From a virus, in IMG/VR virus record IMGVR_UViG_3300049893_000899, positions 1-64,000 of that record: DNA of 64,000 nt. One strand, written 5' to 3'. Positions 24,023-63,487 of the stretch are shown here, in pieces. The notes beneath the pieces are model-generated. The model searched no databases and was not told where the DNA came from. It saw nothing but the letters and a program-made list of their open reading frames with translations. The translations under genes and the position numbers were made by a program. How positions within the stretch are numbered: the stretch's first letter is position 1; the number at the start of each line of letters is the position of its first letter.

Positions 24023-25027
24023 ATGTTGTTCGAGTACGAGGAGATTAAGAACATAAATCTTAAAGAGAAGATATTAAGCGAGGTGTCCCAAGAGGACATC
24101 TTCGCAAGATATCTATCTATTGAAGTCAAGGCTAAGTCTATGTTCAGAAATCCCCTTAGAGACGACAAGAACCCTACATGTGAATTTGTTAAATTCAACG
24201 GAGTATTATACCTTAGAGATTATTCTGGTTTCTTCGGAGAGATAGGTGTCAACTGCTTCGACTTAGTATCTTTTCTCTATAATATAAGCTTCAAGGAAGC
24301 TTTAATAAGAGTCAAAGAAGACTTAAACATTGGAAAGATTGGATTATTCAGTGTTGCTTCAAAGAGAAAAGAGATAGAGATCGAAGAGTCTGAACCTAAA
24401 AAAATATCAATAGTAAAGAGAAGCTTCAATAATGTAGATAAAGAGTTTTGGAATCAAGGAACCATACAAGAAGAAGACCTTATTAAGTTTAATGTCTATC
24501 CGGTTAAAGAATGCTGGATAGACGACTTAAGAGGATATTGGTACAGTGAAAAATACGCTGATAATGTAGCATATAGTTACTTCTTTGAAGATGGTTCTAC
24601 CAAAGTATATTTCCCTAATAAGGAGAAGAAATATAGATTTATTGGTAATTCAAATTATGTACAAGGATTACGTGAATTAGATTTTAGTAAAGATATAGTA
24701 TTCATTACTAAATCAATGAAAGATGTAATATCACTATACAAACTTGGATATACTGCTATCTCTGAACAATCCGAAGGAAGTATTGTCAGAGATTGGTTAA
24801 TCAAACTATTAAAAGTAGCATTTAATGAAGTTGTCTTGCTATATGATAACGATGAAGCAGGAATAGAAGGGGCTAAAAGAAACTCCAAAAAGCATTCTAT
24901 ACCATATATCTATTATGAAGAAAGTTCAAGTAAAGATACTTTCGATAATATAAGAGATTATGGTGCCGAGGCTACAAAACAAAAAATTATTAATCTATTA
25001 AAACAGAAAAGAAATGAGAACAATTAA
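24023..25027 (+). CDS. DnaG-type primase (Toprim)
   Basis: 334 residues. An N-terminal segment MFRNPLRDDKNPTCEF resembles the pre-Toprim part of DnaG primases, but no zinc-binding Cys/His set is visible. The Toprim core has SEQSEGS (catalytic Glu region) and LLYDNDEAGIEGAKR (DxD-type metal site) at about 270–285. Likely role: making RNA primers for the phage fork. It overlaps the start of the ubiquitin-like gene by 14 bases. Confidence 0.85.
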   Translation: MLFEYEEIKNINLKEKILSEVSQEDIFARYLSIEVKAKSMFRNPLRDDKNPTCEFVKFNGVLYLRDYSGFFGEIGVNCFDLVSFLYNISFKEALIRVKEDLNIGKIGLFSVASKRKEIEIEESEPKKISIVKRSFNNVDKEFWNQGTIQEEDLIKFNVYPVKECWIDDLRGYWYSEKYADNVAYSYFFEDGSTKVYFPNKEKKYRFIGNSNYVQGLRELDFSKDIVFITKSMKDVISLYKLGYTAISEQSEGSIVRDWLIKLLKVAFNEVVLLYDNDEAGIEGAKRNSKKHSIPYIYYEESSSKDTFDNIRDYGAEATKQKIINLLKQKRNENN

Positions 25028-25532
25028 AATTATCACACCATCAGGAAGAGTATCAATCGAAACTAATGCAACAACTTTCGGAGAATTAAGAGAACACCCT
25101 TCTTTCCCGGCTGTTGACTTGACTAAGAACGAAGTTACTGTAAAAGGTAGCGATGTTTCTTTGAGATTAGATAGCGCTGCTTTACCTGAAGGGAATGTGG
25201 TTATGTATATAACAGCTAAAGAACAGAAGGCAGGTATGTCAAAAGAAACTTATTACGATCAGCTTTCTACTGGAGAACTTAAAGACCTTTGTGACGAAAG
25301 AGATATTTATTACTATTCATCCAATAGAGAAAGTCTTATTGACCTTCTTCTTGAAGATGATTTAAGAGAAAATTCTTCAGTAAGTGAATCTAAAGTTGAA
25401 GGGATTAAGAATGCTTTATTAAGTATCAAGACTCAAATTGATGGAATCTTAGATTCTATTGATGATGAAGATGATGAGTTCGACATGAAAGAGCTTGAAA
25501 GACTTAGTAACGCTGTTAAGAATATCAAATAA
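25014..25532 (+). CDS. Ubiquitin-like (beta-grasp) protein with SAP-like segment
   Basis: 172 residues. Residues 1–70 read as a beta-grasp fold: strand TIKIITPSGRVSIET, helix FGELREHP, and strands ending NVVMYITAKEQ, as in the ubiquitin-like PRTRC protein C and ThiS/MoaD relatives. Residues about 80–115 (LSTGELKDLCDERDIYYYSSNRESLIDLLL) resemble a SAP DNA-binding motif. The C-terminus ends VKNIK, with no di-glycine, so classical conjugation of the full protein is not obvious. It is followed by E2-like, JAMM and E1-like genes, which supports the call. Confidence 0.6.
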   Translation: MRTIKIITPSGRVSIETNATTFGELREHPSFPAVDLTKNEVTVKGSDVSLRLDSAALPEGNVVMYITAKEQKAGMSKETYYDQLSTGELKDLCDERDIYYYSSNRESLIDLLLEDDLRENSSVSESKVEGIKNALLSIKTQIDGILDSIDDEDDEFDMKELERLSNAVKNIK

Positions 25533-25539
25533 CTAAAAC

Positions 25540-25561
25540 GCCCTGGAAACAGGGCTTTTTT
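25540..25561 (+). terminator. Terminator or attenuator before E2-like gene
   Basis: GCCCTG-GAAA-CAGGGC then T6; the E2-like ATG follows the last T directly. It would limit expression of the next genes relative to the beta-grasp protein, and RNA ending here would lack the downstream gene. Confidence 0.75.
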
Positions 25562-26563
25562 ATGATACATCATAACCAAAGAATACAACAGAAGAATGAG
25601 CTGAAAGAAAGACACCCTCTGTTTTATCAAGCCTTGATTGAAGAGAAGAAACAGTTTGGATATAGTTATGGGAAAATACATATTATGTATGAGAATTACT
25701 ATGTAAGAACTGATTATGGAGCTTCTTATTTCTGCCCTAAAAGCATAATAACAATTGATGTTCTTAATGGAGTAATGCATTTCACTCCAATATCTGTAAA
25801 TTCTATATATAATATGAATTATTTCTCACACGCGTCAAACAGTGGGAGTCTTTGTATAGGAATGAAGTTTGAAACACCAATTAAACAGGCTTTGAATGAA
25901 ATAAGCGATGAATATAATAGTGTTTCAGATGGAGAGGAACCAGAGCTTGATGTTGATGATTATATCTACTTCTTAAAACTATTAGATCAATATGTTACAT
26001 ATGAATCTATTGAAGGTGTTCCTTATTCTGTATTTAGGCACAACATAAAAAACGTAGCTCCTTCAAATTACAAGTTTCTAATTCCAAAAGACTATATACC
26101 AAATGAAGATAATCAAGATTCAGATATAAATCCATATGATTATATTTATGAAATTGCTATAGATTCATCTTCAAGGCATAATAGTATGAATTATGAAGGA
26201 GAGCTTGTTGGTATTTCAAAAAGAAATAATTCATTAATACTTAATTGTGGATATTTAATAGTTTTAAGTAATATTGAAAAATCTTTCTTACTTGAAAAAG
26301 GATATATAGACTGTGTTTCAGGATATCCTTATAAAATGAATAATATACATCGGTCATATTATTATGGATTTTACATTGGAGACAAAAGAATAGAGGATAT
26401 AATTGAAGAAGTAAAACCTGTAAACAGAAAAGTAAGATTAACAATTGATTGTTTCAGAAGTGAGAATAATCAGTTTGAAAACGCATTGCAAAGAAGAGTA
26501 AACAATATCACAAATGAAAAAGAAGCCAGAAATAGAGCAAAAACAAGAACAATCGAAAGATAA
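25562..26563 (+). CDS. E2-like protein (PRTRC protein B-like)
   Basis: 333 residues. The segment ASYFCPKSIITIDVLNGVMHFTP (about 55–76) followed by SNSGSLCIG (93–100) matches the E2-like fold of PRTRC protein B, in which a Cys–Leu–Gly strand follows the core. Cys98 is the candidate active residue, and Cys58 is another. The C-terminal half is beta-rich with no known family. Known relatives occur with Ub-like, JAB and E1-like genes. Overlaps the JAMM gene by 50 bases. Confidence 0.55.
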   Translation: MIHHNQRIQQKNELKERHPLFYQALIEEKKQFGYSYGKIHIMYENYYVRTDYGASYFCPKSIITIDVLNGVMHFTPISVNSIYNMNYFSHASNSGSLCIGMKFETPIKQALNEISDEYNSVSDGEEPELDVDDYIYFLKLLDQYVTYESIEGVPYSVFRHNIKNVAPSNYKFLIPKDYIPNEDNQDSDINPYDYIYEIAIDSSSRHNSMNYEGELVGISKRNNSLILNCGYLIVLSNIEKSFLLEKGYIDCVSGYPYKMNNIHRSYYYGFYIGDKRIEDIIEEVKPVNRKVRLTIDCFRSENNQFENALQRRVNNITNEKEARNRAKTRTIER

Positions 26564-27689
26564 TGCTCCTGTAATTGAAAAGACTAAACATAAGCTTTTC
26601 ATACCAAACAGCATGATGAACCATATTAACCAGTTACATAGAGAAATTGGACCTATTGAATGGAGTGGTATATTGTTGTTTGAGCATAACGGATCTATTG
26701 AAGAGGGATTAGACCTTAAAGCTAAAGGTTTATATCCTATGAACATAGGTCATGCTACGTATACCGAATTTAGTTCAGGTAAAAAGATGCAAGATATTGA
26801 AAAGCTTCACGAAACATGGGAAGATGAAGACTGGAGATGCGCGTTGGTCCACACGCATCATTCCATGCCGGCTTTTGCTTCCACAACAGATATAAAGGAA
26901 ATAGAAGATAATGCTAATCTTCATGAGTACTATGTTTCGTTGATTGTTAACTTCAGTGGTCAGTTTGTTTGTAAGATAGGGATTTATTCTGAAGAAGTTC
27001 AGACTGTAGAACGATACAGAATACATCCAATGTCTGGAACAAAAGAGTTTGCTGGAACTTCAAAGAGAGAGTATAAGAAAGTTGAGATTGTAGACTGCGA
27101 AATAATTTACGAAGACAACAAAGTTCTTTCTAAAGTTATTAAAGAACTTAAAGACTCTAAGAAAGCTTCAGAAGTAAAGACTTTTGCTACAACAAGTAAC
27201 AAATATGGAGACTCTTTCAAATATGGTTCTAAGGATTGGAATTGGGATCAATGGAAGAATAATAATCAGCAAACAAGTCTATTTGGAGACACTACAAGCA
27301 TAACTAAGAATATAGACTACGAATATATTTATGAAAATATACTAGAGATCCTTTGTCTTGACAGCGATTTAGCAAGTGAACTTACAGAAGAATTTAATGC
27401 AAACATGATGAAGCCAAGGGCAACAGAAAAAGAGGTTGTATTAGGTATTTCAATGATAGAGAAAAGGATATCTCCAATATTGACAATGAAGTCTATAAAA
27501 GAAGTTGTTTACGATATTTGCTTGTACCATATTGACTTAAGTATTGAAGATTTTGACGACATCTTATCTTTGTTGAAGAAGAGTTCAGACGTATATAAGA
27601 TATTTGAAAAAGTTAGAGAATATCTTGAGGAAGAGTTAAGGGAAATAGAAGAAATAAAAAGACTAAATGGATTACAGGGACAGATTTAA
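26514..27689 (+). CDS. JAMM/JAB metalloprotease
   Basis: 391 residues. Glu49 (GPIEWSG) plus H113-T-H115, S123 and D126 (HTHHSMPAFASTTD) form the complete JAMM zinc site. Such enzymes remove ubiquitin-like proteins or process their C-termini. The N-terminal JAB domain spans about residues 25–165; the C-terminal 200 residues are helical and of unknown role. It overlaps the E1-like gene by 23 bases. In PRTRC clusters the equivalent is protein A. Confidence 0.85.
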   Translation: MKKKPEIEQKQEQSKDNAPVIEKTKHKLFIPNSMMNHINQLHREIGPIEWSGILLFEHNGSIEEGLDLKAKGLYPMNIGHATYTEFSSGKKMQDIEKLHETWEDEDWRCALVHTHHSMPAFASTTDIKEIEDNANLHEYYVSLIVNFSGQFVCKIGIYSEEVQTVERYRIHPMSGTKEFAGTSKREYKKVEIVDCEIIYEDNKVLSKVIKELKDSKKASEVKTFATTSNKYGDSFKYGSKDWNWDQWKNNNQQTSLFGDTTSITKNIDYEYIYENILEILCLDSDLASELTEEFNANMMKPRATEKEVVLGISMIEKRISPILTMKSIKEVVYDICLYHIDLSIEDFDDILSLLKKSSDVYKIFEKVREYLEEELREIEEIKRLNGLQGQI

Positions 27690-28365
27690 AGGAGCACCAT
27701 GGGCAAATACACCGTTAAGAGTAACGGTGTATGGCGCAGGTTCGTTAGGTTCTTGGTTGACATTGTTGCTATCAAGAATAGGGCATGATATTCAACTTGT
27801 AGATTATGATGTTGTTGAAGAAGTTAATTTAGCTGGTCAGTTCTTTAGAACTGTAGATGTTGGATCGACTAAGGTTTCTGCTGTTGCTAATAATGTTAGA
27901 AGCTTTTCTGGAGAGAACATAAGAACACAAACAGCAATGGTAAGAGAAGACAATGCAATTACACTTCAATATGGCAACATTGCTTTTTCTTGCTTTGACA
28001 ATCTTCAAGCAAGAAAAGATATTGCAAACATGTTCTTAGATAACAACTTACTTGATAGACAGTTCTCTTGTCTTGTAGATATTAGGATGTCAGCGGAATC
28101 ATTTGAGGTTTATTTAATTAAGAATAATGACGAATTGAAGCATTACTTGGTTACTTTACCTAACGACAACGATGTAGAAGACTTGCCTTGCACATTGAAG
28201 TCAACAAGCCATATCGCTATGCACGCAACTTGTAAAGCTGTTGAGGTTTTCAATAACTTCTTGACTAATGAATTTGGCTTAGATGGATTTGAAGAGAGAG
28301 AAGTTTTCTACAAGTATAGATATGATTCAATTTTAATGAAAGAAACATATGTTAGATCACTTTAG
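27667..28365 (+). CDS. E1-like (ThiF-family) adenylating enzyme
   Basis: 232 residues. The nucleotide-binding motif GAGSLGS is at residues 23–29, followed by VDYDVVEEVNLAGQFF (D46, N54) and VGSTKV (K69), the standard ThiF/E1 order. CFDN (109–112) is the conserved Asp after the Rossmann core. The Cys in LPCTLKSTSHIA near residue 180 is a candidate thioester residue. Likely role: activating the C-terminus of the beta-grasp protein. Confidence 0.85.
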   Translation: MDYRDRFKGAPWANTPLRVTVYGAGSLGSWLTLLLSRIGHDIQLVDYDVVEEVNLAGQFFRTVDVGSTKVSAVANNVRSFSGENIRTQTAMVREDNAITLQYGNIAFSCFDNLQARKDIANMFLDNNLLDRQFSCLVDIRMSAESFEVYLIKNNDELKHYLVTLPNDNDVEDLPCTLKSTSHIAMHATCKAVEVFNNFLTNEFGLDGFEEREVFYKYRYDSILMKETYVRSL

Positions 28366-51922: not shown

Positions 51923-52314
51923 TATAATATCGTTACAGTTATATCTTCTTCAGAACTAATAACTACAAGACATGAGTTATCATTAAGCTCAATAAAATCT
52001 TGAACACCTATCAACTCTCTTGTTGCAGTTAATTTAAAAGAAACTACAATATCATTAGAGTTTAAATTATGATTTATTGTTTTGGTAAAATATCCAGTAT
52101 AGTCTCCAGAGCCTACATCCCAAGATGTAATGTCCTCAGAGTATTTGTTTACTGTTGGAGGTGGTGTTATTTGAACAATTAGTTCAGATAACAACTTTTC
52201 TAAATCACTCAACAATTTCTCTTTTGAGTGACCTTTGTTCTCCTTGTTAGATACGTTGTCACGTATTCTAACAAGGGTAACCATTAATTCTTGTATTGTT
52301 TTAGTAGTTTCCAT
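51922..52314 (-). CDS. Small tail-associated protein
   Basis: 130 residues from ATG 52,314 (METTKTIQELMVTLVRIRD); an ATG six bases earlier is also possible. The N-terminal half is a coiled coil and the C-terminal half a small beta domain (YTGYFTKTINHNLNSNDIVVSF). It overlaps the end of the giant gene by about 14 bases and the next fibre gene by one. Confidence 0.6.
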   Translation of the reverse strand: METTKTIQELMVTLVRIRDNVSNKENKGHSKEKLLSDLEKLLSELIVQITPPPTVNKYSEDITSWDVGSGDYTGYFTKTINHNLNSNDIVVSFKLTATRELIGVQDFIELNDNSCLVVISSEEDITVTIL

Positions 52315-55300
52315 TTTCAAGTCCGTTTATTTTGTTCTTAAGGTGTCCATCCATAAATAAACGGACATAATTGTCATGACTAACAATTCTTCCTAGATCT
52401 TTCGGGAGCTTATCAATATCTCCAGTGAATAAATCACCTGCTAATTTAGCTAAATCTGATATAAAACCAAAACTTTGAGATACATTATTAAAACTTCTAA
52501 GTAATTCTCCTGGGTTAGCGAAGTATGTTAACTCATTGAATACTCTAAGTGCTATATACGGACTAAGGAATCGTATGTTTTCAATAAAGCCTCCTTCTTC
52601 ATCATCTCCACCTGGAGCAACCAATGAAGAAAGAAGATACAACCCATAGAATGAACCAGCAAAAATACCTGTCCATCTTAGCCTACTTGCGTTATAAGCT
52701 ATAATTTCAGATACTTTATCATCATTTTTTCCAACAGCGGCTTTAACTCCTCCCAACACTTTCTCTGCGGTACTACCTTCAGTTTTTCTATATCCTTCCA
52801 TTATCTGAATTATCTCAGCAGTAACCATCCCCATTATGGCTTCATCTCCAAAAGCGTTTCCATTAATAAGGTCTTCATCATATTCTCCTGTTTCCGGATT
52901 GTAGAGAGTATCAAAATCTTTAAGAGCATATTGCCATCCAGCAAAAGTCATCATCATCTTTCTAGGTAAGAATTTTCTTAATGACATTAAAGCTGGACCA
53001 GCTACTTTCTTATCCATCTCAGACAAGCCTCTATTTCCATAATAACCCTGAGTGTTAGATATTAAGTCAGAAATATTAAGTCCTATTTCAGAAACCATGT
53101 TATTATAAGATCTTTCATCTATCTCTCCTTTATCGTTTCTCATTATTCTACTTGTAAAGTTAGAAGTTGTAGCAAACACCTTTGGGCTTATAGATATCCT
53201 TCTTGACTTTTCGTCAAATATAATAGAATCATAAAGACTAACAGCTTCAGAGATTTCAGGAGTAGTTGTTCCATCTGCTTTAAGATATTCTCCATTCTCA
53301 GCAATACATCTTATTCCTTTAAGTTTAGCAATCGTTAACACAGTAGAAATCATGTGTTCACCAACAGCAAAAGGCATATGGCCAGCAGCGCCAAAGAAAG
53401 CTCTAACAGTTTTGTCATTCATTATATCTTGAACAAAAGCCTCATTGAAGTTTAATCTTGAATTAAAGAATACCGTTATTGCTGTAAGCTTATCTGTTCT
53501 CATAGCATCATCAGCAGAGTAATTCTTCATTGAATCAACTATGTTCTTAAAGTATTCAGTAGAAGCTTCTCCTATAAGATTAGAATCTAAAAGGTTATTA
53601 GCCTTGAATGCAATCATTGAAGACACCGTTCCAGCAGTAGCATTCACTAAACCACCTTCAATATTTCCATTAAGTTTTGCTTTTGCAGAAATAGAAGTAA
53701 TTGTTCCAAGGATCTTACTTATTGAATATCCTTTGCCAAACTGCATATCTTCTCTTCTCTTACCAAGAACATATTCATCAAATACAGATTCAGCAGCTTT
53801 AAGTCTTTGGCTGTTTCCTTTAGTGTTAAAAGCCTTATTGAAGTATTTTGTAATAACTTTCTTTCCTCCTTCTTTTATGTTTATGTTCTGTTCTCTTAAT
53901 AAAGCTTTAAGAGTTTCTCCCATAAACGCAGCTTTACTCATTTCTTCAAAGTTAATGGCGCTATGATAGTTCATCATTAATATTGATAATATATCTTTAG
54001 ATCTATCTTCAATCTTAATTCCTTTGTCTCTAAACTTAACAGGAGGTCTTTGAATAGGTTCTCCATTAAATGTAGATCTTCTAACAATAGCCTCTTCATT
54101 AGACGCTCTCTCTTCTGCATCATTAACATAATCTAAGTCTTTAGATTGTTGATTCTTGATGGACTCATTAATTCCTTCTTTGAAGCCTTCTTTTAGTTTC
54201 CCTTCAGCATATAATTCATGAGATGTCTTTCCAACAAAAGGAAGCTCGTTATTAATAAGCATATCTCCTTTTTCAAGATAACCATTAGACTTGTGTAGTA
54301 ATATTTCAAACCCATCAGCTATCTTTTTCTCTTCAGTAGTAAGAGCAGCCCATTTAGCGGACTTATATTTAGGTAAAGGAATAAGTCTCCCTTTTCCATC
54401 AGTCTTTTTGGCGTCTTTCTCATAGTTTTCTTTTTTAAATATATCTATTTGCTTACCAACATAATAAGTGCTTTTAATAGTCTTCTTTTGTTGTTCATTC
54501 AAATCCATATATTCTCTATATTGAGCCTTATCATATTCCCCAGACTCAAATCTATCGTTTATTTGTTTAGCTTTAAGGTCGTACTCTTCTAAAGCCTTTT
54601 TGTAGTTCTCCATACCGATAGCTATATATCGTTGTCTTTCAGCTTCAAGACGCATCCAGTCATACTCAGATACTAAGCATAGTCTATCTTCATCATTAAC
54701 TCTCTGAACATAGAAGAACTTCTCATTAACCTCTTCATAGTTAACCCCTAATGTTTTATTCCATCCATTCTTATTTACATAATCTCTATACATAGAAGCA
54801 AGGTTGTCTTTTCCCCTAAACTCTTCTTGGTATTTAATTCTAACGTTATCTTTAGCTTTCTCTAAGTACGCCACAAAAGGAGTAATTATAGAGTCGTTTA
54901 TCATCTTCTTATCGCAAAATGCCAACACTAAAGAAGAAATATCTCTTTCGTCTTCAGATAATCTTTTATAGATCGTATTATATCTTTCGTATAACCATTT
55001 CTCTTTATTCTTCTGGAAAGCTTGAACACCAATGTTAATTAGATTATCTCTTACAGCCTTGTCTTTAAAAGAACCTATTCCTCCTTTTATCTTTCTGAAC
55101 AAGTCTCTAGCCTGCATCATTCTAACATTGATATGACCTCTATCTTCAAAAGCCAAAGTAAAAGCAAGAACTTTCTTAGAACTCTTCTCTAAAGATGAAT
55201 TAGCTTCAGATATCTTTCTTTCAATAGAACGAAGAGCCTCGCTTAAGTCATTAAGAGTCTGTTTATGATATCTTTTTGCAAGTAAACGGTTGATTATATT

Positions 55301-58300
55301 TTCAAGAGAAGTCATATTTTCTTCGCTTGTTTCAACGTTAGTTTTTGTTCCTTCAAAGTCAATAACACCAGCATCAAGACCTATAGTTTTATTTATTAAA
55401 TCACTAAGCTCAGCATAGCTAGGATTATCTGGCAAGGTAAGAGTGTCTTCTATATTTTTAGTTGTGCTATTGTCCCCTGAAAGTCTTTTTACAATACCAA
55501 CAATCTTTCTGTACTCCTCTTTTATTGTAGCCAATTCAGAATCAATCTTAGACTGTAATGCTGTATCTGGAATTCCACCATCTAATGAAGCTTGGATGTT
55601 TTTAAATCTCTTCAAAGAAGCAAAAATATCCCCAACATGAACACTTAAGTTAGCTATTTCAACATCCTCAGTACTGCCTTTCGAAGCAAACTCAAGCTTA
55701 GGAGATATTTGTTTAGATATCAAATTAAACACACCAAGAATACTTATAGCCTTCTTAATCTGAGTAAGCTCGTCCCATCTTTCTTGTTGGTTTGCATGTT
55801 GAGCATAAAACTGCTCTAATGTCATTTTCCCTGGATTTGTTCCATCAATATCAACATCGTCAAGTATTTGTCTTAATGGGTCTCTAGTGATACTTGATAT
55901 TAAGTCTGTTATTACTATGCTGTCATTATAAACGTCCATAGCCATTTCAACAAGTTGTCTCAAAACATAGAAGTCAGAAGCTTTACCAATCTCTGATCTT
56001 ATCTGATCAATTGTTTCAACCATCTTGTTGATGTTTTGACTTCCGGAACTTGTGTCTATTCCAGACTTACTGGCAGCACTAACAGCTTCAGAAAGCATCT
56101 TGTTCAATCCATCCATAAATCCTTCAAGATCAACGTTTTCATCGTCTCTTATTGAGGCTATTAATGTATTAGTTGCTATATCTAAAGCTTCTTTCTTGTA
56201 GTTGTATTCAAAGTTACCAGCGTTATCAGACCCTTCATATCTTTCTTTAGCCTCTCTCATTGGTCCATCAGACTTAAAGTTAAATCTGTTTTCCATCACT
56301 TCATCTATATTGATGGTAGGCATATTATTGTATATGCTGCTATTAAGAACCTCGTTAGCCATTAAAGCAATAGCGTCATAGTCTAAACCAAGTTTCTTCT
56401 TGATGATATTGTAAACCTTGTTAACCCAGTTTCTTATTTTGCCAAATATAGATTCTTCAGCATTTTCAAATATCTCGGTACCTTTAAGACCTAAAGCAAC
56501 TGCAAGAACTTCTTTTCTATGTAACTCAGAACCTTCTTTTAATTCAGGGTATCTATCTGAAACTCTATCAGCTATATCTGTCTGCATAGCTTGGTCATAC
56601 GCAGCCATTGCCTCAGAAGTATAAGCTCCACCAGATATATCAATGAATACGTGTGATAACTCGTGTATAACTGTGTCTCTACTTAAATATTCCCTAGATC
56701 TAAGTTTTACAACAGGAAGTCCATCAACATAAGTAACTGATCCCCATGCTTTCATATTAGGGTCTATAATCACTTGATTAGCTCCCAACTTAGCCTCAAG
56801 AAGACCTATCTTTCTTGCTGTTCTTTTCTCGTCGTCTATCTTATCAAACTCAGACATCTTATTGTAATAGTCTTGATATTCATCTTGAACACTACCTGAT
56901 TGATTCTTAAGAATAATATTGTCAATAAATTGATCAGCAAAGAAAATAGGACTTTCTTCTATCATTTTACCGGCAAGATCTAAAGCTGTACTATAACCAA
57001 TTCTATTTAGAAACTTAATTGTTACAGGAATTACATTTGAAGAACCAGAAACTGGAGTTCTTCCAGTCATGAAATAATTCAATAGAACACCAATCTTAAT
57101 TGGCATTGGAGCATCGTCAAATGATTCTGATATTTCATTAGATAAATCACTATGAATTTCTCCTCTATTAAACTTTAGAGCTAATTTAAACTTGTCAGCA
57201 GGAGTCAGGTCTTCTAAATTATTTGAAGCCAATATAGCCGCTCTAGCTTCTTTAGACGCTTCTCCTCCAGTTTTTGATATAGCTATAAGCCTATAAACAT
57301 TCTGAACTTGTCTTCTTGTTCTTTCTTTTTCTCTATTCTTTTCGTAGTTCTTTTTTATTACTTGAATAACCTTGTTATCAGTATTAACATTTCCTTCAAT
57401 AACAGCAACAAAGTCCTCTATCATTCTGTTGTTCTTATTTGAATCAGAAAACACTTTAGAAGCAAAGAACTTATTGTAGACATAAGAAGCCATCTCCTTC
57501 TCTACGTTTATTAATCCTCCAATACTTTTTATTGCACTGTAAAACTTTTTACGATTAGCTATATTTTCTTTAGATGTGTCGTTTAAAATTGTAGAGATAT
57601 ATGTAGTTACTGTTTCGTTTGATACAATAGAAATTGAATTAAGAAGTACTGAAAGTTTTGCAAAAGAGTTTCTTAATGAACCTAAGTAAGTGTTGTTACT
57701 TAAATAGTTTTTGCTCATGTTTGCATTATTCTTGTATAGTCTATTTCTCAATTCAAAAGAACTTCTTTGAGAAAGTTTGTCGAACTTTAATTCAGTAGCT
57801 TGAGTTGATAGTTCTGAAGATAGAGAATTTAACTCATGATACATTTTTAACATACTTATAATATAAGACATATTAATAGTTGTCATTGAGCCGGAATTAA
57901 AATCTTTTATGTCTTTAGCTAAAGAGTCAGCAGAAACATCAACTTTAACATATTTAAATTTCTTCATTTTAAAGTTATATTCTGCTGCTTTACTAAAAGC
58001 AGCCAAATCATTACCAGAAAAATCAATACCTTTTGAAGTTAAATATTGAATCATTCCATTTTCTCCATACTTACTATAAGCAAATATTACAGGATGATTT
58101 AAGTATAACATTGCTCTCATTGGATGAACTCCTGCTCTTATCATCGCAAATAACATTCCAGAAGTAGTCTTATTTATATTAACATAAGAAAGGAATGGAT
58201 CCTTTGCCATATCAACGAATCCATTAAGGAAAGAAGAGATAGCGTCAACAATAGAAACAGCAGTATTTTTAACTCTTTCTCTAGCGTAAGAAAGAACTTC

Positions 58301-61300
58301 AGTTTTTGCGTTTCCTTGATCTTGGCTAACATTGAACTTTGAAGCTATCATTGAAAGTATTGGATTCTGATATCCATAACCAATCTCAACCGCAGCCATA
58401 TTCTGCTGGTTAGCAGTTGCTCCAATACCATCTTGTCCACCCATATTGTCACTTTTACTTCTAAGCTGAGTGATTGGGTTCATTATATCCAAGAACGACT
58501 TATTATTAATAGCATCTAAATCTCTTCCTTGAAGTTCTAATATGTCTTTAGTGTAATCATCTTTTAACTCTGAAGCATCAACAGGCGCCATCTTATCTAA
58601 GTAAGCTTCAGTATTAGAGGAGTTAAGCATATTATACCAATGATTGAAAAGTTCATCGTGCATCTGAGATATAACTCCAGCAGAACTTCCATCAGATTGG
58701 TTTGAGTTTCTTATTACGAATTTACCTTGTTTGTTCTTATAAACCTTTATAGATTTAAATATTAAGAACATCTTATCAATATCATAGTCAGAACCAGTCT
58801 TACCCGTTATTGATGGATATAATATTATACTATCTCCAAGATGCGGAGGAAGTATACCTACAATATCAAGGCTATCTATTGAAGATAGTTTTTGTGTAGG
58901 AATACGGTAACCTATAGCCTTATTGAAAACATCTTTATTGTTCTTCATTAAATCAGTTATCTCTTCATAAGACATCTTCTCTAATCCAGGGATGTTCTTG
59001 AAGAAACTCAAAGGAACTAAACACTCTCCAGCTTTTCCAGGAAGAGGGTGCATTAGCTTCGCGGAAGTTCTTCCATCTAAGAACATAATAGAAGACTTTT
59101 CTTCTTCACTCATAGAGTTAAGTCCAACAGGAGAAACCTGAACAGCAGAACCTCCAGGCATAGAAGGGTTAACAACCCCTTTCTGGAAAGAAGATATTAC
59201 AGATGAAATTATTTGATAACTAGAAGGCCCAACTTCATCTAAGTTGAAAGGAGTTATTTCGCTACTAGTTTTTTCTTTAATAAAATCAACAAGCTCTTTG
59301 TTGTTCTTTATTGCGTCTACCTTTAATAGTTTTCTTTTAATCCCTTCATTGAACTTCTTAACGTCTTTTATATTCCCACTATCAAAGTCCAACCCTAAGT
59401 TGTTCATAAACTCATAAGTAAGTCTTTCTGTTATTGCAGCTTCAATAGCATCAGTCTCTTCAAGGTATTTCTCTCCAGTATATTCAACTCCATTCTTGGT
59501 GTAGTAAACAAGTCCAGACTTAACGTTCTTCATAAGCTTTTTGAACTGAATCCCAATAGAACGTAAAGATTTCCCCTCAGTAATCTTGTTTGGAGTAACT
59601 TGTTGCATACCGTGGTATCTATTCTCAAGTTCAATAGCAAACAAATCTTTACCATTAATAGCCTCACTAAAGTCAATAGCTCCTTGTGATCCCATCTTAA
59701 CAGCAGAATCAAATAAAACTTCATCAATACCATTCTTTTCCATATTCTCCAATAAAGAAGCTAATTCAGTTCCTTTATGGATAGCTGGGATTATTGGAAT
59801 CATTGAATACTTAAGCATTGTAGGAACGGCAAGTAAGTGATTTAAAGATGCTGTTCCATCTTCATTAATGTTTGTTGTTCTTGAAGATATAGAATAATGG
59901 AAAGGCTTTTGAGGCCCAAACAAGTTTAATGCTTGTTGTTTTTCGTAGAAAGTAGGGACATGATTCTTGTCTTTAAGTTTCTCAACTAAAGTATTGTTAG
60001 ATTCATCCCAATCTCCTTGACTTCTTCTGAAGTCAACATATCTATCTAATGTAACAAATCCTTGCGCATCTGCTTCATTGTTTTTTAAATAAGGATTATA
60101 TAACGCCTTGGCTTCAGCTTCAGACATTAACTTAGACTCAACGGCTGTTTTAACCAAGAAGCTATACAGCCCACCAGAATCTCTTTCTATGTCATTCAAC
60201 ACTGCAATTTTAAATGTAGGCTTGTTGAATATATAAGATTCTTTTGAAGGAGAAACTAAAGCTTTATATCTTTTAACAATCTCTACAGCAGACTTAAAGA
60301 ATCCTGGATGTATAGCGTTAGCATTAAACTGTCTCATATTTAAAGCTGTGTCGATAAGAGTTACAGCTTCAAAGGCCACCATCCCACTCATATTTCTACT
60401 AGCTAAAGATCCGAAGTCAAACATCTCTTCTCGCATCTCTTTAACAGCAGAATCAATTATGTCATTCACAACCTTATCTAATATAGCAGAATTACTCTTG
60501 TTGAATACATGCTTACCGTCTTTTGAGTCAAAGATAGCATTAACCTCTTCTTGAGAACTAAAGTCTAAATCAAGTATTGAAGAATTTTTATATTTTTTGT
60601 CGTAATGTTTAATTCCAATAAACTTAGTAAAAGGCATGTTTTTAGCAGCCTCATAAGCTTTGTATGCCTCTATTTCTGCCTCAAGGAACTTAATGATCTC
60701 CGTCTTAATAAATTCAGAGGCAAAAGCTCTTATGTTGCTTCCTGGATTCTTTCTTCTATAATCAACATACTCTGTTAAAGACACAGAATAGAATCTTTCA
60801 ATGCCAGCATCAGCAGGTTGTAACATCCTCAAAGGATATATAATACTTCCTGTTGGATTTCCATTAACGTCAAACTTACCGTTAAACACAGGGCTTCTTA
60901 AAGCATTAATTTGTTCTTTGTAGTAAATTGAAACATCTTCAGTTATCGTGTTTTCTGAAGTATGCTTATTTTTTTCTTCACCTCTAGTCTTGATTATCTG
61001 AGAAAAGGAAAGTACTTTTTGAAAGAAACTCATTCCTCCTTTATAAGCAGAAGAAAATGCGTCTTCACTTATTCTTCCATATAGATTCAATATGTTTCCA
61101 CCAGGCTTTCTTTTGTTTGCCCCATTCTTAACATCAGAAATAAATCTGTTTGATGAAGCTTCTTTGTTTATTGAGTAAACATTTTTACCTTCAGCTCCAA
61201 TAGTATTTTCTTCATGTAAGCTACCAGAGATAATATCTTGTATTTGAGATATCTTCAACATAGCATCAATAGGAGATATTACATAGAAAGTATTCTTTAA

Positions 61301-63487
61301 TACAGTCTCAGTTCTTGTAGCTACAGCGTTATAAAGTAAATCTTTTCCGTGATGTTGTGAACCGGCTTTATTGTAACAATTGTTTACATAAGCTGTAATT
61401 AAAGTAAACAATCTAACTGTTTCATCTGGAGTTTTCCCATATTCTTCAAAGAAGAAAGCTATTGCCTCTTTAGATAAGGAATCTTTCTTTCCTTGAGACA
61501 ATAATTCATATATAGTATTTACAAGAGAGTTTTGAGCAAGCTTTAACCCAGCTCCATCAACAAGAGATCTAGCATACACACTGTTTAAATAAGCTAACTC
61601 AGAAGGAACTACAAACGTGTCCTTCTCTTCTATAGAGTCGGTATGAGTCCCTTCTCCGTATCTCAACAACCTCTCTAATATACCTTTAGCTTTAGGGTCA
61701 AGATTTATTGTCCTAATTAAACTCTGTCTAAACTTTTCCTTAGTAGCATCAGGTCTTGGATTCATTAATCCAGAATAAACTATATCTCTAAACAGCTTTT
61801 TTCTTAATCCAGTAAAAGCCATTGCAAGCTCATTGATTTTCTCTTCAATAGAAGATAAAGACGTTTCAGAGAATATTCTACTTTGTACTATTGTTTGAGA
61901 TTGACCACTTCCAACCTTAACATCTTCAGTAGAAGCATCATACATATTAGACTTCACGTTAGCAAAAGCATTAAAGAAAGAAGCCTTAAACATTTCAAGA
62001 TACTCTTTCTCAGCTTTAGTTGAACCTTCTTTTTCAAGAAGGCCAACTATCTGGTTTAGTTCCGGCTTGATCTTCGCGTATCTCTTCAATGTAGCAACCA
62101 TATCAGCGTATCTAGTAACTATTGTATACTCGACCTCGCCATCAACCTCTCTTGAAGACACCTTATTAGATGTTGATTCAAGAATACTATTTAATGTCTT
62201 CCACATCACTTTAAATGAATGTGTTTTAGGAAGACCTGTTCTTTTATCTATAACTATATTACCTTCAATGTCTCTTTCAAAGATACTTGATAAGAAAGAC
62301 TTAACGCTTGCATCAACACTATTAATCTGGCTAACAGTATTTGAAGCTTCAAGGTTATGAACCTTATTATCATAGCTTTCTTCATCATCTCCCTCTTCTT
62401 CTGTGCTAACCTCGTCCTCTTTAGGGTCGTTGTTTTTGTCTTCAAATACTTCAACCCCAACAGAAGAAGTGTTAGATGTGATATCTGGCTCTTTCTCCTC
62501 TTCTCTAAAGACAACACCTTTTTCTTTAAGGTTGGCTTTAAGTAATGTTTTAAACTTATCTTCTTGCTGAAGTAGAGCTATTAAATTATCTTTATATTGG
62601 TCAGTATAGTTTTCTTTCACATAAGAAACCATCTTGTCAAAAAGAGAATTTCCTTCTTCATGCCCAGAGAATAAATCAAGGAAGTCTTCCTCTAATCCTT
62701 TCTTGTTACTTTTAGCTACTTCACTATTCAACCCAAATTCATCAATTAATATTGTTGAAGCAGAATCAACATAAGCACTCATTAAAGAGTCGGAAATAGG
62801 TCTTCTTATATAAGAAACGCCATTCTCGTTTGCTATTGTAAAGCTGTTTTTAATTGTTTCTTCAAACTTAATTAAATCCTTCTTATCCTTAAAGTTATCT
62901 TTAAACGATTTGAAAGCATTATAAAAAGTATCATTACCAAGTCCAGACTCTCCTGTCTTTGTCCACTGAATAAAGTCATTGTATATTCCTATTGCAGCAT
63001 TTAACTCAGAATAGAATAGATTTCCTTTTGACAGCTTATCAAAGCTATCAATAAAACCATTTCTATCGTAGCCTAAAAACACCTCAGCAAAGTATAAGAT
63101 GTTGTTGTGATCAGAAACAATATCAAATTCAGTATTCTTTGATATAGCGTCAATTAGATTGTTGAAGTTTCCTTCATTAGTAATGTATAGATTTATTATC
63201 GGATCTACAACAGACAAATCTAAATTAGGAAACTCTTCTTTTATTTTTGAAGAAACAATAGAGTTACCGCTTTTTTTAAGCTCTTCAATACTTTTGAATA
63301 CGTTTACATCTTTCTCGTTTACTGTATTGAAAAAGAAATTGTTTACTATATCTTCAGCAAATGGAGCTAATGAATGTTTTTCTCCTTTAGCTTCAGCATC
63401 ATGGAAAGATGTTGTAGCTATTGTTTCTCCTTTAGCTCTTGCTATAACGCTAAAAGTTCTCGACGTATTTATTGGGCAACTAGACAT
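52301..63487 (-). CDS. Giant virion protein with RNA polymerase and zincin motifs
   Basis: 3,728 residues. Around 1,567–1,571 the sequence GSDYDIDKMF carries the DxDxD metal site of the two-barrel RNA polymerases of crAss-like phages, with the preceding YRIPTQ and ILPPHLGDSIILYPS segments in the expected order. At 2,275–2,279 HELSH with a nearby Glu-rich helix is a zincin metallopeptidase motif. Long coiled coils fill 2,300–3,300, and one hydrophobic helix lies near 3,600–3,625. Known relatives (for example the phi14:2 enzyme) are injected polymerases that transcribe early genes. The peptidase may process the protein itself or cell wall; this is inference. Confidence 0.8.
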   Translation of the reverse strand: MSSCPINTSRTFSVIARAKGETIATTSFHDAEAKGEKHSLAPFAEDIVNNFFFNTVNEKDVNVFKSIEELKKSGNSIVSSKIKEEFPNLDLSVVDPIINLYITNEGNFNNLIDAISKNTEFDIVSDHNNILYFAEVFLGYDRNGFIDSFDKLSKGNLFYSELNAAIGIYNDFIQWTKTGESGLGNDTFYNAFKSFKDNFKDKKDLIKFEETIKNSFTIANENGVSYIRRPISDSLMSAYVDSASTILIDEFGLNSEVAKSNKKGLEEDFLDLFSGHEEGNSLFDKMVSYVKENYTDQYKDNLIALLQQEDKFKTLLKANLKEKGVVFREEEKEPDITSNTSSVGVEVFEDKNNDPKEDEVSTEEEGDDEESYDNKVHNLEASNTVSQINSVDASVKSFLSSIFERDIEGNIVIDKRTGLPKTHSFKVMWKTLNSILESTSNKVSSREVDGEVEYTIVTRYADMVATLKRYAKIKPELNQIVGLLEKEGSTKAEKEYLEMFKASFFNAFANVKSNMYDASTEDVKVGSGQSQTIVQSRIFSETSLSSIEEKINELAMAFTGLRKKLFRDIVYSGLMNPRPDATKEKFRQSLIRTINLDPKAKGILERLLRYGEGTHTDSIEEKDTFVVPSELAYLNSVYARSLVDGAGLKLAQNSLVNTIYELLSQGKKDSLSKEAIAFFFEEYGKTPDETVRLFTLITAYVNNCYNKAGSQHHGKDLLYNAVATRTETVLKNTFYVISPIDAMLKISQIQDIISGSLHEENTIGAEGKNVYSINKEASSNRFISDVKNGANKRKPGGNILNLYGRISEDAFSSAYKGGMSFFQKVLSFSQIIKTRGEEKNKHTSENTITEDVSIYYKEQINALRSPVFNGKFDVNGNPTGSIIYPLRMLQPADAGIERFYSVSLTEYVDYRRKNPGSNIRAFASEFIKTEIIKFLEAEIEAYKAYEAAKNMPFTKFIGIKHYDKKYKNSSILDLDFSSQEEVNAIFDSKDGKHVFNKSNSAILDKVVNDIIDSAVKEMREEMFDFGSLASRNMSGMVAFEAVTLIDTALNMRQFNANAIHPGFFKSAVEIVKRYKALVSPSKESYIFNKPTFKIAVLNDIERDSGGLYSFLVKTAVESKLMSEAEAKALYNPYLKNNEADAQGFVTLDRYVDFRRSQGDWDESNNTLVEKLKDKNHVPTFYEKQQALNLFGPQKPFHYSISSRTTNINEDGTASLNHLLAVPTMLKYSMIPIIPAIHKGTELASLLENMEKNGIDEVLFDSAVKMGSQGAIDFSEAINGKDLFAIELENRYHGMQQVTPNKITEGKSLRSIGIQFKKLMKNVKSGLVYYTKNGVEYTGEKYLEETDAIEAAITERLTYEFMNNLGLDFDSGNIKDVKKFNEGIKRKLLKVDAIKNNKELVDFIKEKTSSEITPFNLDEVGPSSYQIISSVISSFQKGVVNPSMPGGSAVQVSPVGLNSMSEEEKSSIMFLDGRTSAKLMHPLPGKAGECLVPLSFFKNIPGLEKMSYEEITDLMKNNKDVFNKAIGYRIPTQKLSSIDSLDIVGILPPHLGDSIILYPSITGKTGSDYDIDKMFLIFKSIKVYKNKQGKFVIRNSNQSDGSSAGVISQMHDELFNHWYNMLNSSNTEAYLDKMAPVDASELKDDYTKDILELQGRDLDAINNKSFLDIMNPITQLRSKSDNMGGQDGIGATANQQNMAAVEIGYGYQNPILSMIASKFNVSQDQGNAKTEVLSYARERVKNTAVSIVDAISSFLNGFVDMAKDPFLSYVNINKTTSGMLFAMIRAGVHPMRAMLYLNHPVIFAYSKYGENGMIQYLTSKGIDFSGNDLAAFSKAAEYNFKMKKFKYVKVDVSADSLAKDIKDFNSGSMTTINMSYIISMLKMYHELNSLSSELSTQATELKFDKLSQRSSFELRNRLYKNNANMSKNYLSNNTYLGSLRNSFAKLSVLLNSISIVSNETVTTYISTILNDTSKENIANRKKFYSAIKSIGGLINVEKEMASYVYNKFFASKVFSDSNKNNRMIEDFVAVIEGNVNTDNKVIQVIKKNYEKNREKERTRRQVQNVYRLIAISKTGGEASKEARAAILASNNLEDLTPADKFKLALKFNRGEIHSDLSNEISESFDDAPMPIKIGVLLNYFMTGRTPVSGSSNVIPVTIKFLNRIGYSTALDLAGKMIEESPIFFADQFIDNIILKNQSGSVQDEYQDYYNKMSEFDKIDDEKRTARKIGLLEAKLGANQVIIDPNMKAWGSVTYVDGLPVVKLRSREYLSRDTVIHELSHVFIDISGGAYTSEAMAAYDQAMQTDIADRVSDRYPELKEGSELHRKEVLAVALGLKGTEIFENAEESIFGKIRNWVNKVYNIIKKKLGLDYDAIALMANEVLNSSIYNNMPTINIDEVMENRFNFKSDGPMREAKERYEGSDNAGNFEYNYKKEALDIATNTLIASIRDDENVDLEGFMDGLNKMLSEAVSAASKSGIDTSSGSQNINKMVETIDQIRSEIGKASDFYVLRQLVEMAMDVYNDSIVITDLISSITRDPLRQILDDVDIDGTNPGKMTLEQFYAQHANQQERWDELTQIKKAISILGVFNLISKQISPKLEFASKGSTEDVEIANLSVHVGDIFASLKRFKNIQASLDGGIPDTALQSKIDSELATIKEEYRKIVGIVKRLSGDNSTTKNIEDTLTLPDNPSYAELSDLINKTIGLDAGVIDFEGTKTNVETSEENMTSLENIINRLLAKRYHKQTLNDLSEALRSIERKISEANSSLEKSSKKVLAFTLAFEDRGHINVRMMQARDLFRKIKGGIGSFKDKAVRDNLINIGVQAFQKNKEKWLYERYNTIYKRLSEDERDISSLVLAFCDKKMINDSIITPFVAYLEKAKDNVRIKYQEEFRGKDNLASMYRDYVNKNGWNKTLGVNYEEVNEKFFYVQRVNDEDRLCLVSEYDWMRLEAERQRYIAIGMENYKKALEEYDLKAKQINDRFESGEYDKAQYREYMDLNEQQKKTIKSTYYVGKQIDIFKKENYEKDAKKTDGKGRLIPLPKYKSAKWAALTTEEKKIADGFEILLHKSNGYLEKGDMLINNELPFVGKTSHELYAEGKLKEGFKEGINESIKNQQSKDLDYVNDAEERASNEEAIVRRSTFNGEPIQRPPVKFRDKGIKIEDRSKDILSILMMNYHSAINFEEMSKAAFMGETLKALLREQNINIKEGGKKVITKYFNKAFNTKGNSQRLKAAESVFDEYVLGKRREDMQFGKGYSISKILGTITSISAKAKLNGNIEGGLVNATAGTVSSMIAFKANNLLDSNLIGEASTEYFKNIVDSMKNYSADDAMRTDKLTAITVFFNSRLNFNEAFVQDIMNDKTVRAFFGAAGHMPFAVGEHMISTVLTIAKLKGIRCIAENGEYLKADGTTTPEISEAVSLYDSIIFDEKSRRISISPKVFATTSNFTSRIMRNDKGEIDERSYNNMVSEIGLNISDLISNTQGYYGNRGLSEMDKKVAGPALMSLRKFLPRKMMMTFAGWQYALKDFDTLYNPETGEYDEDLINGNAFGDEAIMGMVTAEIIQIMEGYRKTEGSTAEKVLGGVKAAVGKNDDKVSEIIAYNASRLRWTGIFAGSFYGLYLLSSLVAPGGDDEEGGFIENIRFLSPYIALRVFNELTYFANPGELLRSFNNVSQSFGFISDLAKLAGDLFTGDIDKLPKDLGRIVSHDNYVRLFMDGHLKNKINGLENGNY

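What the first reader, a model, noticed from the sequence alone, without database searches (positions are those of the whole stretch)
25014..28365. Complete ubiquitin-like cassette (Ub-like, E2-like, JAMM, E1-like) inside a phage replication operon
Four consecutive overlapping genes encode a beta-grasp protein, an E2-like protein, a full JAMM site (E49, H113, H115, S123, D126) and a ThiF/E1 enzyme. The order and E2/JAB features match the PRTRC plasmid cassettes and the prokaryotic ubiquitin-like systems known from comparative genomics. Here the first gene overlaps the primase, tying the system to DNA replication, and the Ub-like protein carries a SAP-like DNA-binding segment with no C-terminal di-glycine. 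It may modify replication proteins or counter host proteins.
Basis: partly seen in the sequence, partly recalled or inferred. Interest (0 to 1): 0.85.

Follow-up and report, generated by a model that had tools for sequence, protein, structure and literature searches.

The report
Ubiquitin-like conjugation cassette in crAss-like phages
A widespread group of gut and water phages related to crAssphage carries, next to its DNA primase, four linked genes that look like a complete miniature ubiquitin system (a tag protein, two tag-transfer enzymes and a tag-cutting enzyme), so these viruses probably attach their own protein tag to proteins during infection.

Summary
Window 25014-28365 encodes a beta-grasp UBL, an E2-like protein, a JAMM peptidase and a ThiF/E1 enzyme. 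The order UBL-E2-JAMM-E1 recurs in about 150 of 167 related phage loci; the rest are cut by contig ends or belong to a divergent lineage that keeps the order. Cultured phages phiCrAss001, DAC15 and Fpv1-4 carry the E1, annotated 'thiamine biosynthesis' or 'hypothetical'. Catalytic residues are invariant: E1 C175 (109/109), E2 C98 (116/116), the JAMM site and UBL Gly74 (111/111).

In 16 of 122 UBLs the protein stops 1-5 residues after this Gly, never at it; in cr106_1 UBL and tail are separate genes; jumbo phages without a detectable JAMM make a UBL already ending in GG. So the UBL is most likely a precursor cut by the JAMM.

E1 and JAMM are solid. The E2 fold is inferred: Foldseek finds no E2, but divergent phage E2s link it to yeast Ubc4/9/13. 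Primase adjacency is conserved (122/128); substrates are unknown. Gene order matches plasmid PRTRC systems, but PRTRC cut-offs fail: a new, phage-borne variant of a known kind.

The parts
24023..25027 (+). DNA primase (Toprim), the conserved upstream neighbour; overlaps the UBL gene by 14 nt
   Evidence: phrog_12622 DNA primase 1e-43; primase directly upstream in 122 of 128 loci
25014..25532 (+). UBL precursor, 172 aa: beta-grasp domain (residues 1-74, 25014-25235), then a helical tail (25236-25529)
   Evidence: AF2 pLDDT 93-98 over 1-70; Foldseek to ubiquitin family; family of 122 sequences
25233..25235 (+). Gly74 codon: invariant Gly (usually Ser/Ala-Gly) at the end of the UBL domain; predicted JAMM cleavage point and conjugating C terminus
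   Evidence: 111/111 non-redundant; natural proteins end 1-5 aa later
25562..26563 (+). E2-like protein, 333 aa, candidate conjugating enzyme
   Evidence: Invariant C98, G100, E148; helix-4 strand-Cys-helix-helix model; linked to yeast UBC through divergent phage E2s
25853..25855 (+). Cys98 codon, predicted E2 active-site cysteine (FSH-x7-C-I-G; H90 at 25829-25831)
   Evidence: 116/116 non-redundant members; motif listing
26514..27689 (+). JAMM/JAB metallopeptidase, 391 aa (E49 26658-26660, H113 26850-26852, H115 26856-26858, S123 26880-26882, D126 26889-26891)
   Evidence: Prok-JAB in 45 of 52 members; residues 99-100% conserved; hhalign to PRTRC A 7e-8
27667..28365 (+). E1/ThiF-like activating enzyme, 232 aa
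   Evidence: Pfam ThiF 6e-16; profile hits to UBA5, MccB, ThiF, UBA6, UBA1, NAE, Cap2; hhalign to PRTRC ThiF 9e-21
28189..28191 (+). Cys175 codon, predicted E1 catalytic cysteine (C-x2-K-x-T)
   Evidence: 109/109 non-redundant; aligns with the PRTRC ThiF Cys

Best explanation
The four genes encode a phage-borne ubiquitin-like conjugation and deconjugation pathway. The UBL is made as an inactive precursor; the JAMM enzyme cuts after the invariant Ser/Ala-Gly at the end of the beta-grasp domain (Gly74 here), releasing the tail and exposing a C-terminal Gly. E1 adenylates this Gly with ATP and takes it on Cys175 as a thioester; the E2-like protein accepts it on Cys98 and transfers it to an amine of a target; the JAMM enzyme can also take it off again. 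Shown by sequence and structure comparison: the cassette, its conserved order, the invariant residues and the beta-grasp UBL. Inferred: cleavage at Gly74, thioester transfer and the E2 activity. The primase link suggests that the tag acts during genome replication, most likely on replication proteins or on host proteins at the replication site; I hold that substrate claim at only about 0.4.
For: Order UBL-E2-JAMM-E1, same strand, in about 150 of 167 loci; exceptions mostly truncated by contig ends. Invariance in non-redundant sets: UBL Gly 111/111, E2 Cys 116/116, E1 Cys 109/109, JAMM residues 99-100%. Four independent signs that the Gly is the working C terminus: (1) tail lengths run from 1 to 213 aa, never 0, and 16 of 122 UBLs end 1-5 aa after it, e.g. 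KVKSGK*, RMKAGA*, KVKSGE*; (2) in cr106_1 an HNH gene lies between UBL (KIKSGKF*) and a separate tail ORF whose last 50 aa match the crAss001 UBL tail, 1e-7; (3) divergent phages with JAMM have short UBLs ending KVDGP*, KIEGA*, KIDGASR*, KVEGAN*, KIDGA*; (4) PhiXhv-15 and Ep032, close relatives of each other, have UBL ...KASGG* at its natural end and no Prok-JAB match anywhere in about 228 kb, while the other eight phage records tested in the same two searches match. E1 profile finds UBA5 first in the PDB (4e-15) and keeps ATP, Mg and Cys residues. Divergent phage E2s carry HPHV-x4-[IL]C-x-G and align with yeast Ubc4/9/13 (1e-4 to 2e-4) and with the window E2 family (5e-5 to 7e-5); reversed controls 0.07-0.5.
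Against: No biochemical data. Foldseek of the window E2 model finds no UBC fold in the PDB, only crAss homologues in BFVD; model confidence is modest (pLDDT 70). Direct hhalign of the E2 family with PRTRC B is weak (p=0.009) and one reversed control scored as high. The UBC link rests on an alignment of 3-6 divergent sequences and three yeast UBC sequences supplied by me from memory. No E3-like gene was identified in the window. Single Gly instead of GG in nearly all UBLs.
Confidence: 0.75

Rival explanations
1. Sulfur-carrier system: the UBL is a ThiS/MoaD-like carrier activated by a ThiF-like E1 to give sulfur for a cofactor, RNA or DNA modification; the E2-like protein is the sulfur acceptor or an unrelated thiol enzyme.
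For: E1 best NCBIfam model is a ThiS adenylyltransferase (1e-17); the E1 is annotated as thiamine biosynthesis in phage records; divergent UBLs have a ThiS-like L-x2-GD-x-V-x-L-x-P ending.
Against: All ThiF/MoeB equivalog models are far below cut-off (64 against 159 bits); no cofactor genes were identified in the cassette; an E2-like protein with invariant Cys, linked to UBC through intermediates, is always present. Iyer et al. 2006 found no JAB gene in the thiamine and Mo/W cofactor operons (PMC1779556).
Confidence: 0.1
2. The cassette conjugates the UBL, but for conflict: it tags host defence or housekeeping proteins, or particles of competing phages, rather than acting in replication.
For: Related cellular systems (CBASS Cap2/Cap3, BIL) act in anti-phage conflict (PMC10097602, PMC11354881); E1 matches many PADLOC E1-E2 models weakly.
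Against: The cassette sits beside the primase in 122 of 128 loci and is ordered and intact across very diverged phages, unlike typical patchy counter-defence genes; many PRTRC plasmid cassettes also lie beside replication genes such as dnaN, Rad52 family or primase-polymerase.
Confidence: 0.3
3. The UBL is not conjugated: it is a structural or adaptor precursor (as proposed for the lambda TAPI/TAPK pair) matured by the JAMM, with the E1 and E2-like proteins acting elsewhere.
For: A UBL released by a JAB peptidase in phage tail operons has been proposed (PMC1779556).
Against: E1 with all catalytic residues and its Cys is always encoded with it; genes lie in the replication block, not with tail genes; JAMM-less jumbo phages keep UBL, E2 and E1 with UBL ending in GG, so activation rather than maturation is the constant.
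Confidence: 0.07

Closest known systems
PRTRC-type plasmid systems (type 6d of Iyer et al. 2006: PRTRC C, B, A and ThiF; Pfam Prok-E2_D)
   Same: Same order UBL-[F]-E2-JAB-ThiF; standalone E1 with a matching catalytic Cys (hhalign 9e-21); JAB 7e-8; UBL of some members ends in K-x-G with 0-3 residues or with a long tail; often beside replication genes.
   Different: No protein reaches a PRTRC model; UBL and E2 have no PRTRC model hit at all; protein F absent between UBL and E2; the PRTRC E2 lacks the His that the phage E2 has; E1 tree separates phage and PRTRC (100/100).
BIL (BilABCD) anti-phage system
   Same: UBL, E2, JAMM and E1 in one operon; JAMM opens the C-terminal Gly (PMC11354881).
   Different: BilA has two UBL domains and BilD a two-lobed E1; here one UBL and a single-domain E1; only BilD matches, weakly (4e-4).
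CBASS type II Cap2/Cap3
   Same: E1 and E2 chemistry plus a JAMM; Cap2 E1 domain is a distant PDB hit.
   Different: Cap2 is one E2-E1 protein and its target is the cGAS-like enzyme itself; here there is a dedicated UBL and no nucleotidyltransferase in the block.
Lambda-type TAPI/TAPK tail genes
   Same: Phage UBL with a tail region and a JAB partner (PMC1779556).
   Different: No E1 or E2; tail assembly genes, not replication.
Eukaryotic ubiquitin/UFM1 pathways
   Same: UBL precursor processing, E1 closest in the PDB to UBA5, E2 motif of divergent phages HPx..IC.
   Different: Very low sequence identity; single Gly; no E3 or proteasome identified.

Membership tests
PRTRC system | ThiF protein passes TIGR03736 | tested here: not met
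   43.1 bits against cut-off 144.75
PRTRC system | Protein B (E2_D) model match TIGR03737 / PF14460 | tested here: not met
   No hit in the window nor PF14460 among hits of 84 members
PRTRC system | Protein C (UBL) model match | tested here: not met
   No NCBIfam hit
PRTRC system | Order C-B-A-ThiF | tested here: met
PRTRC system | Accompanying proteins E, F and ParB-like | tested here: inconclusive
   No NCBIfam PRTRC hit in six neighbouring proteins; whole genome not scanned
Ub-like conjugation pathway (general) | Beta-grasp modifier with accessible C-terminal Gly | tested here: met
   exposure by cleavage inferred
Ub-like conjugation pathway (general) | E1 with ATP site and catalytic Cys | tested here: met
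Ub-like conjugation pathway (general) | E2 (UBC fold, catalytic Cys) | tested here: inconclusive
   Cys invariant, topology fits, indirect profile link, Foldseek negative
Ub-like conjugation pathway (general) | Covalent UBL-protein conjugates | not testable with these tools
   Needs biochemistry
JAMM/JAB deubiquitinase-like peptidase | E...HxH...S..D zinc site | tested here: met
BIL system | BilA-D homologues | tested here: not met
   Only BilD at 4e-4
Thiamine or Mo-cofactor ThiF/MoeB | Passes equivalog cut-off | tested here: not met
   64.3 against 159 bits and lower

The most novel reading that the evidence does not exclude
crAss-like phages, among the most abundant human gut viruses, run their own complete, reversible ubiquitin-like modification pathway coupled to genome replication: a viral counterpart of modification of replication proteins by ubiquitin or SUMO, with a precursor whose JAMM-released tail is a separate functional part.
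Probability: 0.4. Interest if true: 0.92.

Novelty: new variant of a known kind. Interest (0 to 1): 0.8.

Why it matters
Prokaryotic ubiquitin-like systems are known from cells and plasmids, mostly as defence; here a whole cassette is a conserved part of the replication region of a large phage group, including cultured phages whose genes are annotated as thiamine biosynthesis, metalloprotease or hypothetical. It gives a testable reading for four linked phage genes, a processing rule (Ser/Ala-Gly, removed tail) and laboratory systems (phiCrAss001, DAC15) for asking what such systems, including uncharacterised PRTRC plasmid cassettes, do.

Tried and rejected
Single-protein scans of IMG/VR with the window E1 and E2 found nothing; alignments did. 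Foldseek of the E2 model against the PDB and BFVD gave no UBC. Direct hhalign of the E2 family with yeast UBC gave nothing (0.11), and with PRTRC B a p-value no better than one reversed control; both dropped as evidence. HMMER of the E2, JAMM and UBL profiles against PDB sequences gave no relevant hit. The window E1 has no plasmid hit. An alignment meant for PRTRC C mixed in unrelated small proteins (A13); replaced by four clear ones. SAP-like DNA binding of the tail was not supported beyond weak hits. Literature: no held paper found linking crAss-like phages to a ubiquitin-like system; Chambers 2024 and Hor 2024 are not held, so prior mention elsewhere is not excluded.

Full report
What is there. 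The window is part of a 95,355-bp virus record. Its terminase is closest to crAss-like phages: Cellulophaga phi14:2, cr118_1 and Flavobacterium FpV. Genes at 25014-28365 follow a primase and a Sak4-like gene and precede a RusA-like gene and an exonuclease. The four proteins are a 172-aa UBL with tail, a 333-aa E2-like protein, a 391-aa JAMM protein and a 232-aa E1.

Conservation. tblastn with the E1 hit 66 phage records; with the crAss E1, 78 records including phiCrAss001, DAC15, DAC17 and Fpv phages. In those inspected the annotated neighbours show the same block: primase, hypothetical, hypothetical, metalloprotease, ThiF. Two scans of IMG/VR added 160 loci. Iterated HMMs over all ORFs found the order UBL-E2-JAMM-E1 on one strand in about 150 of 167 loci; most others run into contig ends. 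One scan of 84,980 bacterial and archaeal genomes gave a single 12-kb contig, so the cassette appears to belong to phages; that scan used only two peptide patterns.

Residues. In non-redundant sets: UBL G74 111/111; E2 C98 116/116, G100 115/115, E148 115/115; JAMM E49 109/109, H113 110/111, H115 113/114, S123 112/113, D126 112/112; E1 R6, G23, G25, D48, N54, K69, D111, R116 and C175 all invariant. These are the residues that Ub-like chemistry needs.

The Gly. The invariant Gly74 (usually Lys-Ser-Gly or Lys-Ala-Gly) closes the beta-grasp domain that AlphaFold models at pLDDT 93-98 and that Foldseek matches to ubiquitin, NEDD8 and ISG15. After it the sequence is variable: 1 to 213 residues, never none. 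Sixteen of 122 UBLs end 1-5 residues later, e.g. ...NKVKSGK*...SRMKAGA*. In cr106_1 the UBL gene ends KIKSGKF*, an HNH gene follows, and the tail is its own ORF. The sister lineage with JAMM has UBLs ending KVDGP*, KIEGA* and the like. Jumbo phages PhiXhv-15 and Ep032 (relatives of each other, so one event) have a UBL ending in SGG at its natural stop and no Prok-JAB match in the whole record, while the other eight phage records tested in the same two searches match. Absence by one HMM is not proof, but the co-variation fits JAMM as the processing enzyme. Plasmid PRTRC C proteins show the same: K-x-G with 0-3 residues, or K-K-G plus a tail in Nostoc.

E1. The family profile finds UBA5, MccB, ThiF, UBA6, UBA1, NAE and Cap2 and aligns over 162 columns with PRTRC ThiF, catalytic Cys included. 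A tree puts crAss-type, jumbo-type and PRTRC E1s each on one side of a branch, phage against PRTRC 100/100; the window is nearest L104, 40% identical.

E2. This is the weakest part. No Pfam family matches meaningfully in 84 members. The model has helix, four strands, the Cys loop and two helices in UBC order, with good confidence for most of residues 10-150 except the active-site loop, but Foldseek finds no UBC. The bridge is the divergent lineage: its E2s carry HPHV-x4-5-[IL]C-x-G or HPHM...HGSLCLG and align with yeast Ubc4/9/13 over the active site and the NPDDPL region (1e-4 to 2e-4), and with the window family over up to 103 columns, Cys on Cys (5e-5 to 7e-5); reversed controls 0.07-0.5. 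I therefore call it an E2-like protein, likely but not proven.

Function. Primase lies directly upstream in 122 of 128 loci with enough sequence. Several PRTRC cassettes on plasmids lie beside dnaN, Rad52-family or primase-polymerase genes. A role in replication is the best guess, but operon position alone does not identify substrates; conflict with the host or with other phages remains open.

Novelty. Type 6d/PRTRC systems were described by comparative genomics in 2006 (PMC1779556) and BIL and CBASS experimentally. In the open-access library no paper was found that describes such a system in crAss-like phages; one record annotates an 'E1 enzyme family protein'. Gene order matches PRTRC but model cut-offs are not met, hence a new variant of a known kind.

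Noticed in passing
L052, L070, L079 (also L073, L086); L181 3322-6000: In a divergent (partly jumbo) phage lineage the E2-like proteins carry long Cys-rich regions (9-21 CxxC after the E2 motif), possibly zinc-binding and RING-like; no Pfam match. Could be a fused E3-like part.
   Followed up: partly
L181 2817-3239 and L183 1787-2239: PhiXhv-15 and Ep032 UBLs end naturally in ASGG and no JAMM was found in the records: a natural counterpart of a processed UBL.
   Followed up: yes
L004 2608-3811: cr106_1: HNH endonuclease gene between UBL and its tail, splitting the gene 2 residues after the conserved Gly.
   Followed up: yes
L028 823-2961; L164 3947-6056; L043, L091, L100: JAMM ORF in two pieces (insertion or frameshift), two E2 ORFs in one locus, and E2 ORFs of about 660-680 aa: unusual variants.
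   Followed up: no
L171, L174 (plasmids pDMT04, Priestia koreensis): PRTRC-like cassettes directly follow dnaN and a Rad52-family gene on Bacillaceae plasmids, suggesting a sliding-clamp or recombination link.
   Followed up: no
window 52301-63487: Single ORF of 3728 aa on the minus strand.
   Followed up: no
NC_049977.1, NC_031904.1, NC_055884.1 and relatives: RefSeq and GenBank names 'thiamine biosynthesis protein ThiF' and 'metalloprotease' probably misdirect: no thiamine genes were seen in the annotated stretches inspected.
   Followed up: partly
L167 (JALFMW010000101.1, MAG Clostridium sp.): The only hit in the bacterial genome collection, on a 12-kb contig that is probably a phage contig binned into the MAG.
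   Followed up: no
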